Shown in pieces: positions 17,769-26,526 of a stretch of DNA of 64,000 bases. A program made the position numbers and the translations under genes. The stretch is from Chloroflexota bacterium (GTDB lineage Bacteria; Chloroflexota; Dehalococcoidia; Lucifugimonadales; JACPCL1), in the NCBI GenBank assembly GCA_016179765.1, contig JACPCL010000030.1, positions 1-64,000 on the forward strand, read 5' to 3'. Numbering within the stretch: the stretch's first letter is position 1; each line of letters starts with the position of its first letter. A model generated the notes under the pieces. The model was not told the DNA's origin. It saw nothing but the letters and a program-made list of their open reading frames with translations, and searched no databases.

Positions 17769-17818
17769 TGTAACGGACCTGTTACGGCCTTTGCCGTCCT
17801 TGTAACGGAACCGAAACG
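17769..17818 (+). promoter_or_regulatory. Array of ~11-bp direct repeats, candidate PhoB/OmpR-family operator
   Basis: TGTAACGG(ACC) TGTTACGG(CCT) TTGCCGTC(CT) TGTAACGG(AA) CCGAAACG spaced 10-11 bp, directly upstream of the cupredoxin operon and downstream of an OmpR-family regulator. Confidence 0.5.
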
Positions 17819-17883
17819 ACTCCTTGTGCTATTCATATAGAAGGAAATCTATTTCTCGGCTCAGCCGGAAGAAGGGAGAGGGA

Positions 17884-18492
17884 ATGAACAAAGGACCGCA
17901 CTATCTGCTTTTTGGAGGAGGGATAGCTGTTTTGCTCCTGGCGGCTGTCGCCTGCACGGACATCAAGCCCGTGGAGGACAGGGTCGGGGCCGCGGAGCAG
18001 AGCATCGCCGCAGCTCAGGCGAAGCTGACCAGTCTGGAAGGCAAGGTGGGGAAGATCGCAGCGCCAGCGGGAAAGGTCGAATACACTGTGCGCGGCGTGG
18101 AAATCAAAGGCGCTACCAGCACCGACAGCCTGGCAGCGCCGACTAGCGACCCGGCGAAGCTCTCTGACGGCTATCGCTACAAGGGACCTGGAGTATTTGA
18201 GCCGGCCAACCCCAAGAGGTGGGAGGTTTCCACCTACATCTGGACGCCCGGTGCGATAACAGCGCTCCAGGGCGACCAGGTGAACTTGAGGATCTTCATC
18301 ATCAATGGGGACAAACACACCACCTGGGTAGAGGGCCCGGATGGCAAAGAGGTTGTGAAGGAGGAGGTACAGAACCGTGGGCGCGAGTACCTTATGACCT
18401 TCACCGCCTCGCAGGTGGGCACCTACAAGCTCATCTGTAACGAGCACGACCCCACGATGAGGGCGGTCATCACCGCGCTGCCCAGGTCCTAG
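17884..18492 (+). CDS. Cupredoxin-domain lipoprotein
   Basis: Lipobox LLLAAVAC; late H...C-x2-H-x3-M copper motif (KHTTWVEG...TYKLICNEHDPTMRAVI). Confidence 0.75.
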   Translation: MNKGPHYLLFGGGIAVLLLAAVACTDIKPVEDRVGAAEQSIAAAQAKLTSLEGKVGKIAAPAGKVEYTVRGVEIKGATSTDSLAAPTSDPAKLSDGYRYKGPGVFEPANPKRWEVSTYIWTPGAITALQGDQVNLRIFIINGDKHTTWVEGPDGKEVVKEEVQNRGREYLMTFTASQVGTYKLICNEHDPTMRAVITALPRS

Positions 18493-24857: not shown

Positions 24858-25249
24858 AAGAGGTGAGGCACAAGGCCAGAGTGGATGTGGCCCTGATAGC
24901 TATCTACCTGGGCGCCAGCTTGCCCCTCCAGGTATGGTCATTGCTCAACGGGCCGGTCCCCTGGCTCAACTACGGACACGGCTGGGCGAGCACCCCCGCC
25001 TATGGGATTGCCGCTCCCTTGGTTGCCTTCCTCCTGTGGCGGCATAGCCCACGGGCGCGGCTGGCCGCCTACGTCTTCCTGACCTTTGACGCCATGAGGT
25101 CCTTGAGGTTGGCTCACTGGCTTCCCTTGGCTCTAGACCTCGCCATCATTCTCTACCTGCAAACACCGGCCATGCGACACCTCTATCCCTCCATGTGGAG
25201 CCGCTGGGCAGCCCTGCACCTTCCGTGGACGCGGAGCAAGGAGGCATAG
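24854..25249 (+). CDS. Small multi-TM membrane protein
   Basis: 131 aa, ATGA overlap with upstream gene, 3-4 hydrophobic segments. Confidence 0.55.
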   Translation: MKEVRHKARVDVALIAIYLGASLPLQVWSLLNGPVPWLNYGHGWASTPAYGIAAPLVAFLLWRHSPRARLAAYVFLTFDAMRSLRLAHWLPLALDLAIILYLQTPAMRHLYPSMWSRWAALHLPWTRSKEA

Positions 25250-26526
25250 TGGACTACCACCCACGGATTATCTCCTGGAACATCACCGGGGCTTGCAACC
25301 TTCGCTGCCCCCATTGCTACCTGGATGCGGGCCATCGCTGGAAGGATGAACTCACCACCACGGAAGGACTCCACCTTATTGACCAGATGGCCGAGATTGG
25401 CACAGAGCTCCTTATCCTTACAGGGGGAGAGCCCCTTCTCCGCAAAGACCTTCCGCTCCTGGCTCACCACGCCACGAGTAAAGGCATAAACGTGGTCTTG
25501 GGAACAACGGGGACACTGGTCACCCACCCGGTAGCCAGAACCCTCAAAGATGCGGGGGTAGCAGCCGCTGGAATCAGCATCGACTCCTTGGACCCGGTCA
25601 AGCACGACGCCTTCCGGGGCCTCCCGGGAGCCTGGCAGCGGGCTGTCCAGGGCATACAGGCCTGCCACGAGGAGGGCCTGGAGGTCCTGGTCCACACCAC
25701 CGCTCTGAAAATGAACCAGCAGGAGATCCCAGACATCGTTCGGTTCGCCCAAAACAAGGGAGCGAGGGCCTTTCACCTCTTCTTCCTAGTGTGCACAGGG
25801 CGAGGGGAACGCCTCACCGACCTCTCTCCCCAGGAGTATGAAGACCTTCTCTCCCTTGTCTTGGATACCCAGGAGCGGTACCCAGACATGATGGTGCGGG
25901 CTAGGTGCGCTCCGTACATCGGGAGACTAGCCATAGAGCGAGGAGTGCCGCCCATGGGGAGCGCCGGCTGCCTGGCAGGCGCCAGCTACTGCCGCATCAC
26001 GCCCACCGGGGACGTGACGCCTTGTCCCTACCTACCGACAAAAGCGGGCAACGTCCGGCAGCGCGGCTTCCAGAAGGTCTGGGCCACATCCCCGGCGCTG
26101 ATGCAGCTCAGAACCCCCCACCGACAACTGGGGGGAAAGTGCGGCCAGTGCACCTTCAGCCAGGGCGACGACCCCCTCTGCGTTGGATGCCGGGCCCGGG
26201 CCTTCGCCCTTGCTGGAGATGTCATGGCCGCCGACCCATGGTGCCGCTACCAGCCCAGCGAGGCGCACGGCTCCCACAAAGAAGGGTGGCCTGCTCCTCT
26301 CGTGGCCGTCCAGAAGCCCGCCGAAGAAGCCCAGGTCCCCTGGACCAAAGAGGCGCTGGACCGTGTCCAGCAAGTCCCTTTTTTCATCCGTGGGAGGGTA
26401 AAGCAGGCCGCGGAGGCATACGTCCGCCAGCACAGCCTCTCCCAAGTAACCCCTGAAGTTCTCGCCCACCTGCGTCAGAGGGCATACGGTCCACCATCAT
26501 CGGCGGGTGACCCCCCGGCACGGTGA
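25249..26526 (+). CDS. Radical SAM/SPASM protein with C-terminal PCP_red-like domain (heme-modifying NirJ/AhbD-like architecture)
   Basis: CNLRCPHCY radical SAM motif, GGEPLLRKD, GLP/SASID-like region, SPASM cysteines CGQCTFSQGDDPLCVGCRARAF, C-terminal PWTKEALDRVQQVPFFIRGRVKQAAEAYVRQHSLSQVTPEVLAHLRQ; GTG start overlaps previous TAG. Confidence 0.85.
   Translation: MDYHPRIISWNITGACNLRCPHCYLDAGHRWKDELTTTEGLHLIDQMAEIGTELLILTGGEPLLRKDLPLLAHHATSKGINVVLGTTGTLVTHPVARTLKDAGVAAAGISIDSLDPVKHDAFRGLPGAWQRAVQGIQACHEEGLEVLVHTTALKMNQQEIPDIVRFAQNKGARAFHLFFLVCTGRGERLTDLSPQEYEDLLSLVLDTQERYPDMMVRARCAPYIGRLAIERGVPPMGSAGCLAGASYCRITPTGDVTPCPYLPTKAGNVRQRGFQKVWATSPALMQLRTPHRQLGGKCGQCTFSQGDDPLCVGCRARAFALAGDVMAADPWCRYQPSEAHGSHKEGWPAPLVAVQKPAEEAQVPWTKEALDRVQQVPFFIRGRVKQAAEAYVRQHSLSQVTPEVLAHLRQRAYGPPSSAGDPPAR

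What the first reader, a model, noticed from the sequence alone, without database searches (positions are those of the whole stretch)
17769..26526. Candidate undescribed respiratory/heme-modification locus: bd-like oxidase subunit + cupredoxins + cytochrome c + two PCP_red-containing proteins
Seen directly: a co-directional, tightly packed gene set (several ATGA/GTGA-type overlaps) encoding two cupredoxin lipoproteins, a sensor-like protein, a CydA-like membrane protein, a membrane cytochrome c, small TM proteins, a UspA-PCP_red fusion and a radical SAM/SPASM-PCP_red protein. Established: radical SAM/SPASM enzymes of the NirJ/AhbD type modify heme side chains; PCP_red (PF08369) occurs in the protochlorophyllide reductase B subunit; canonical bd oxidases use CydAB with quinol. 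Inference: the locus encodes a bd-like oxidase fed by cytochrome c/copper proteins instead of quinol, with a dedicated radical-SAM maturase that may build or modify its heme.
Basis: partly seen in the sequence, partly recalled or inferred. Interest (0 to 1): 0.82.

Follow-up and report, generated by a model that had tools for sequence, protein, structure and literature searches.

The report
bd-like oxidase with heme-tailoring genes
An uncultured Chloroflexota-type bacterium carries a conserved gene set for an unusual oxygen-consuming respiratory enzyme that probably takes electrons from small copper and cytochrome proteins rather than from quinol, usually packed with genes that look as if they build or adjust a heme group; the enzyme family is known, but I found no description of the attached heme-gene cassette.

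Summary
The genes are really there and the cluster is not chance. The CydA-like protein (20143-21696) is a bd-superfamily subunit of the non-quinol, Nitrospira-like kind (OR-N type): it matches canonical CydA only over the N-terminal heme-binding part, lacks the GRQPW motif, groups with Nitrospira bd-like oxidases, and its genome has no CydB. That part is known. What seems new is its recurrent pairing with two PCP_red proteins, Usp-PCP_red and radical SAM/SPASM-PCP_red: 15 of 17 homologous loci with enough flank have both within 7 kb, and in 296 genomes of the class the oxidase and radical SAM genes co-occur (9 of 10; P about 5e-14). Some loci add a Mrp/NBP35 Fe-S carrier, a small PCP_red protein and a protoporphyrinogen oxidase, pointing to tetrapyrroles. 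The window genome lacks ferrochelatase and uses the siroheme (Ahb) heme route, but betaproteobacterial hosts have ferrochelatase and keep the cassette, so the radical SAM enzyme is not simply the host's heme synthase. Heme tailoring for the oxidase is the best guess, unproven: the radical SAM protein falls below the AhbD/NirJ2 cut-offs, and the radical SAM proteins at these loci are not one clade.

The parts
14450..16924 (+). Histidine kinase (dCache-HAMP-GAF-HisKA-HATPase), likely regulator of the locus
   Evidence: Pfam; same position in L010, L012, L017
16921..17619 (+). OmpR-type response regulator, 4-bp overlap with the kinase
   Evidence: Pfam
17884..18492 (+). cupA: cupredoxin-like lipoprotein, H...C-x2-H-x4-M copper ligands
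   Evidence: (weak Cupredoxin_1); family recurs
18696..19145 (+). cupB: cupredoxin lipoprotein (start at 18696 inferred from lipobox)
   Evidence: PF13473 34 bits above cut-off
19184..20140 (+). Membrane sensor-domain protein without a kinase domain; not part of the conserved core
20143..21696 (+). CydA-like bd-superfamily subunit, OR-N-like, 517 aa
   Evidence: PF01654; AlphaFold model pLDDT 82 matching only CydA chains at E<=0.001; hhalign and tree
21709..22386 (+). Membrane-anchored mono-heme cytochrome c
   Evidence: PF00034 46 bits; homologue follows the CydA-like gene in nearly every locus
22404..22643 (+). tm79: small membrane protein, found in close relatives only
   Evidence: 3 loci
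22766..23200 (+). tm144: small four-helix membrane protein, conserved part of the locus
   Evidence: 24 homologues; AlphaFold pLDDT 91.8, no PDB match
23205..24857 (+). Usp-Usp-PCP_red protein with C-terminal rubredoxin-like CxxC/CxxC ribbon (start uncertain)
24854..25249 (+). tm131: membrane protein seen only here
25249..26526 (+). Radical SAM/SPASM-PCP_red protein, NirJ2/AhbD-like
   Evidence: PF04055, PF13186, PF08369; NirJ2 354 and AhbD 312 bits, both under the 500-bit cut-offs; alignment

Best explanation
The locus encodes an OR-N-type (non-quinol) cytochrome bd-like oxidase with its electron donors and a dedicated tetrapyrrole-maturation cassette. Proposed working: high-potential electrons in the periplasm pass through the two lipoprotein cupredoxins and the membrane-anchored cytochrome c to a low-spin heme held by H233 and M399 of the CydA-like subunit, then to the active-site hemes (H21 side, and E461/R464 side) where O2 is reduced; tm144 is probably a structural subunit. 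In the cytoplasm the radical SAM/SPASM-PCP_red protein, helped by Usp-PCP_red (and in other genomes by a Mrp/NBP35 Fe-S carrier, a small PCP_red protein and a protoporphyrinogen oxidase), tailors a heme or heme precursor for this oxidase. The histidine kinase/response regulator upstream controls expression. Shown here: gene content, family membership, conserved linkage, conservation of ligand positions, absence of CydB and of the quinol motif. Inferred: electron donor, O2 as substrate, the role of PCP_red, heme as the radical SAM substrate, and regulation.
For: Oxidase: profile alignment to canonical CydA over only 228 N-terminal columns (prob 97.6), but over 459 columns to the Nitrospira-type set (prob 100, E 3e-144); tree separates it with both Nitrospira CydA-likes from canonical CydA at 100/100; top nine PDB folds are all CydA; H19->H21, E107->E160, H186->H233 by alignment and M393->M399 by motif; H21, H233, M399, R464 invariant in 35 sequences; no GRQPW; no CydB in a 94.8% complete genome. 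Donors: adjacent cupredoxins and cytochrome c in almost all loci; related CydA-likes sit beside periplasmic-type Mo enzymes: arsenite oxidase in L037 (1073 bits, cut-off 359), a DMSO-reductase-family enzyme in L041, a Tat Mo enzyme with FeS subunit in L036. Maturation: rSAM- and Usp-PCP_red within 7 kb in 15 of 17 eligible loci; co-occurrence P 5e-14 in 296 genomes; protoporphyrinogen oxidase right after the rSAM in seven loci, the four scored with NCBIfam above cut-off (213-288 bits, cut-off 98); Mrp/NBP35 and small PCP_red genes in many; all seven searched betaproteobacterial hosts have ferrochelatase, and in six of them the rSAM is seen at the locus; the window genome already has AhbAB, an AhbC-like and another AhbD-like rSAM elsewhere.
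Against: The rSAM protein is below the AhbD and NirJ2 cut-offs and its substrate is unknown. The rSAM proteins of these loci are several lineages, mixed with PCP_red rSAMs not known to be near an oxidase, and the window genome has such a paralogue on C25. Two marine loci (L009, L011) have the oxidase without the cassette nearby, and Nitrospira/Nitrospirota loci lack it. A bd-family enzyme with only b hemes is reported to be active (Murali et al. 2021, from my own knowledge, paper not held), so no special heme need be required. The Glu ligand of b595 (E445) aligns only by motif and is Ser in 7 of 27 close and 7 of 8 distant relatives.
Confidence: 0.45

Rival explanations
1. The radical SAM, Usp and Mrp PCP_red proteins serve general heme supply: the rSAM is a heme synthase of the siroheme (AhbD) route that happens to be co-regulated with a heme-rich oxidase.
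For: Window genome lacks ferrochelatase and has AhbAB above cut-off, so it must use an AhbD-type step; the rSAM's best families are NirJ2 and AhbD; no rSAM scored from this genome reaches the AhbD cut-off.
Against: Betaproteobacterial, acidobacterial and several Chloroflexota hosts have ferrochelatase and still keep the rSAM at the locus; the window genome has another AhbD-like rSAM directly next to its AhbC-like gene.
Confidence: 0.2
2. The rSAM/SPASM enzyme modifies a protein side chain (of the oxidase, cytochrome or cupredoxin) rather than a heme; PCP_red is only an interaction or docking domain shared by the maturation proteins.
For: Many SPASM enzymes act on peptides (matches to several peptide-maturase models); several invariant Tyr (Y153 in place of E99, Y165, Y167, Y169) in the CydA-like family.
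Against: The closest models include the tetrapyrrole enzymes NirJ2, AhbD, AhbC and NirJ, far ahead of peptide maturases; a protoporphyrinogen oxidase is encoded next to it in seven loci; the invariant Tyr are also present in Nitrospira relatives without the cassette.
Confidence: 0.2
3. The CydA-like complex is not an O2 reductase: it may reduce NO, or move electrons between periplasmic carriers and quinone for reverse electron transport, as suggested for Nitrospina.
For: Function of bd-like oxidases is described as enigmatic and reverse electron transport has been proposed (PMC3578206); active-site E99 is replaced by Tyr throughout; the window genome has two heme-copper oxidase subunit I genes already.
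Against: Axial ligand positions of the oxidase core are kept; no quinol-site motif; the family is read by others as a putative cytochrome c-oxidising O2 reductase (PMC10839748).
Confidence: 0.25
4. The cassette is merely a neighbour kept by common descent or assembly, without function in the oxidase.
For: Two loci lack it; PCP_red rSAM proteins also occur elsewhere.
Against: Association in three phyla, with different gene order and even opposite strand (L015, L033), and from several rSAM lineages; strong co-occurrence in the class.
Confidence: 0.06

Closest known systems
OR-N family bd-like oxidases (CydAA' of Nitrospinota/Nitrospira; bd-like oxidase of NXR clusters)
   Same: Full-length homology to Nitrospira CydA-likes, no CydB, no quinol motif, extra helices instead of the Q-loop, adjacent cytochromes c and cupredoxins
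   Different: A single CydA-like gene and no CydA' paralogue in the window genome; PCP_red maturation cassette attached; no nitrite oxidoreductase seen in the neighbourhood
Canonical cytochrome bd quinol oxidase (qOR, CydAB)
   Same: N-terminal heme-binding core and fold
   Different: No CydB, no GRQPW motif, no recognisable Q-loop, E99 replaced by Tyr
NirJ2 / AhbD radical SAM heme enzymes (TIGR04055, TIGR04545)
   Same: Closest curated models, full-length match of the rSAM and SPASM parts
   Different: Scores 354 and 312 against cut-offs of 500; C-terminal PCP_red domain added
Light-independent protochlorophyllide reductase subunit B (PCP_red)
   Same: Shares the PCP_red domain with both maturation proteins
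   Different: No other part of that enzyme is present

Membership tests
OR-N bd-like oxidase | Groups with Nitrospira-type CydA-likes, apart from quinol-oxidising CydA | tested here: met
   Tree 100/100 split and hhalign over 459 columns
OR-N bd-like oxidase | Heme-binding core kept (E. coli H19, H186, M393 equivalents) | tested here: met
   H21 and H233 by profile alignment, M399 by motif position only; invariant in 35 sequences
OR-N bd-like oxidase | Quinol-binding features absent | tested here: met
   No GRQPW; no alignable Q-loop
OR-N bd-like oxidase | Assignment to a published OR-N or OR-C subfamily | tested here: inconclusive
   Reference paper (Murali 2021) and its alignments not held
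OR-N bd-like oxidase | CydAA' pair of two CydA paralogues | tested here: not met
   Only one PF01654 protein in the genome; a second, distant copy exists in 3 of 10 genomes of the class with the gene
OR-N bd-like oxidase | Oxidises cytochrome c and reduces O2 | not testable with these tools
   Biochemistry needed; putative in the literature too
Canonical bd quinol oxidase (CydAB) | CydB partner | tested here: not met
   No PF02322 match in the genome
Canonical bd quinol oxidase (CydAB) | Q-loop and GRQPW motif | tested here: not met
AhbD heme synthase / NirJ2 | Curated model score over cut-off | tested here: not met
   312 and 354 bits against 500
AhbD heme synthase / NirJ2 | Radical SAM CX3CX2C and SPASM cysteines | tested here: met
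   Invariant cysteines in alignment
AhbD heme synthase / NirJ2 | Acts on a heme precursor | not testable with these tools
   Enzyme assay needed

The most novel reading that the evidence does not exclude
A cytochrome c/cupredoxin-driven bd-like oxidase that uses a new or specially made heme, produced by a dedicated pathway of PCP_red proteins (radical SAM/SPASM, Usp, Mrp carrier, with a protoporphyrinogen oxidase in some lineages) encoded in the same locus; this would be a genetically defined heme-tailoring pathway for a bd-type oxidase.
Probability: 0.3. Interest if true: 0.85.

Novelty: new variant of a known kind. Interest (0 to 1): 0.62.

Why it matters
The non-quinol bd-like oxidases are uncharacterised, although they occur in important nitrifiers and many uncultured bacteria; their electron donor and heme type are open questions. 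A conserved gene cassette that travels with one branch of them, and that points to tetrapyrrole chemistry, gives named genes to test how such an oxidase gets its heme. How heme d itself is made is, to my knowledge, also unresolved.

Tried and rejected
The key reference paper on the bd superfamily is not held. Single-sequence search of PDB found nothing for the CydA-like protein; the profile and the fold did. The tm144 fold has no PDB match, so its role stays open. Idea that a nearby Mo enzyme in L010 is a periplasmic donor enzyme: not supported, it looks like a formate-dehydrogenase/NuoG-like protein. Idea that the locus rSAM is simply the organism's heme synthase: weakened and by the C22 pair. 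Idea that locus rSAMs form one dedicated clade: not supported. Literature searches for PCP_red with radical SAM, and for protochlorophyllide reductase with Usp and radical SAM, found no paper in the held library.

Full report
What is there. Order: histidine kinase, response regulator, cupredoxin lipoprotein A, cupredoxin lipoprotein B, a sensor-domain protein without kinase, CydA-like protein, membrane cytochrome c, small membrane proteins tm79 and tm144, Usp-PCP_red, tm131, radical SAM/SPASM-PCP_red. Spacings are mixed: some junctions overlap or are 2 bp apart, others have gaps of 122 to 264 bp. The kinase/regulator pair at 14450-17619 belongs to the neighbourhood: homologues precede the cupredoxin gene in L010, L012 and L017.

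The oxidase. PF01654 matches residues 88-298 only. The predicted structure (pLDDT 82) matches nothing in the PDB at E<=0.001 except nine CydA chains. Profile comparison aligns 228 N-terminal columns to canonical CydA but 459 columns to a set containing Nitrospira and Nitrospirota bd-like proteins. A tree puts the window protein with these and apart from canonical CydA (100/100; canonical branches are long, so the fine rooting is unsure). Reading E. coli positions across (numbering checked): H19 is H21, E107 is E160, H186 is H233; M393 most likely is M399, and the E445-x-x-R448 motif most likely is E461-x-x-R464. H21, H233, M399, R460 and R464 are invariant in 35 sequences; E99 is Tyr (Y153) in all; E461 is Ser in many. 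In bd structures the low-spin heme has conserved His/Met ligands, heme d a conserved His, and b595 a conserved Glu (PMC8951039), so the low-spin site and the His site look intact while the Glu site varies. GRQPW is absent. The genome (2.29 Mb, 94.8% complete) has one CydA-like gene, no CydB, and two heme-copper oxidase subunit I genes.

This matches descriptions of bd-like oxidases: in Nitrospina, Nitrospira and Kuenenia the N-terminal part aligns, heme ligands are kept, membrane helices replace the Q-loop, quinol-site residues are missing, and cupredoxins and cytochromes c are neighbours (PMC3578206). They are now classed as OR-N, putatively cytochrome c-oxidising, function unproven (PMC10839748; see also PMC9040806). 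So the oxidase is a member of a known, uncharacterised kind. The exact subfamily could not be assigned because the reference paper is not held.

Electron donor. Cytochrome c follows the CydA-like gene in almost every locus and cupredoxins precede it. More distant relatives sit beside periplasmic-type Mo enzymes: arsenite oxidase with a Rieske protein in L037, a DMSO-reductase-family enzyme in L041, and a Tat-exported Mo enzyme with an FeS subunit in L036. In Nitrospira L040 a Rieske protein, a cytochrome b and several cytochromes c surround two CydA-likes. This supports, but does not prove, a periplasmic one-electron donor.

The cassette. A search for the CydA-like protein alone returned 35 loci. 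Of 17 close homologues with at least 5.5 kb of downstream DNA, 15 have both an rSAM-PCP_red and a Usp-PCP_red gene within 7 kb; the two without are marine-type SAR202/UBA2160. Alignments show PCP_red at the C-terminus of nearly all Usp proteins and of all rSAM proteins used. In 296 genomes of the class the CydA-like gene is in 10, the rSAM (E<=1e-80) in 12, both in 9 (hypergeometric P 5e-14; genomes are related, so this overstates independence). Many loci add a Mrp/NBP35 Fe-S carrier followed by a small zinc-ribbon PCP_red protein, and seven loci (six labelled Betaproteobacteria, one Acidobacteria) have a protoporphyrinogen oxidase directly after the rSAM; the four scored with NCBIfam pass its cut-off. 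The window genome has a second rSAM-PCP_red, a small PCP_red protein and a Mrp fragment at the end of contig C25.

Heme context. The window genome has no ferrochelatase, no protoporphyrinogen oxidase above cut-off, but a fused AhbAB far above cut-off, a CysG-N-like protein, and an AhbC-like rSAM next to a TIGR04053 rSAM on C22. Its heme therefore very likely comes from siroheme. That makes 'the locus rSAM is the heme synthase' a real rival. Against it, all seven searched betaproteobacterial hosts, the acidobacterial host and several Chloroflexota hosts have ferrochelatase and carry the locus rSAM wherever the contig reaches that far. The locus rSAM proteins come from several lineages of the PCP_red rSAM family. 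That suggests repeated recruitment or exchange, which fits functional coupling but speaks against one simple dedicated enzyme lineage.

Verdict. Oxidase membership in the OR-N-like group: about 0.9. Non-quinol periplasmic donor: about 0.7. O2 as substrate: about 0.65. Heme or heme-precursor tailoring by the rSAM: about 0.4 to 0.45. The novelty lies in the cassette, not in the oxidase.

Noticed in passing
G000 contig C25:69.1-71.6 kb (L043:9076-11665): Second rSAM-PCP_red (about 54% identical), small zinc-ribbon PCP_red protein and a Mrp-like fragment at a contig end, without an oxidase in sight.
   Followed up: partly
G000 contig C8 (L123:1857-2876) and C22 (L122:2336-4607): Heme by the siroheme route in a genome without ferrochelatase: fused AhbAB, AhbC-like and a TIGR04053 radical SAM gene.
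   Followed up: yes
window 22766-23200: tm144 family: confident four-helix membrane fold with a conserved DPLPGL...GDSTFFF motif and no PDB match.
   Followed up: partly
L037:6600-9812: Arsenite oxidase (Rieske and Mo subunits) directly upstream of a CydA-like gene in a Caldilineae MAG: possible arsenite-to-oxidase chain.
   Followed up: no
window 19184-20140: Sensor-domain membrane protein without kinase inserted between cupB and the CydA-like gene; related domains elsewhere belong to divergently transcribed genes.
   Followed up: no
L021 (MEKT01000001.1): Locus labelled Acidobacteria is nearly the same in order and sequence as the betaproteobacterial ones: recent transfer or mis-binning.
   Followed up: no
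window 20143-21696, residues about 44-96: Extra 50-residue membrane hairpin present only in a subset of Chloroflexota CydA-likes (517-521 aa against 465 aa).
   Followed up: no
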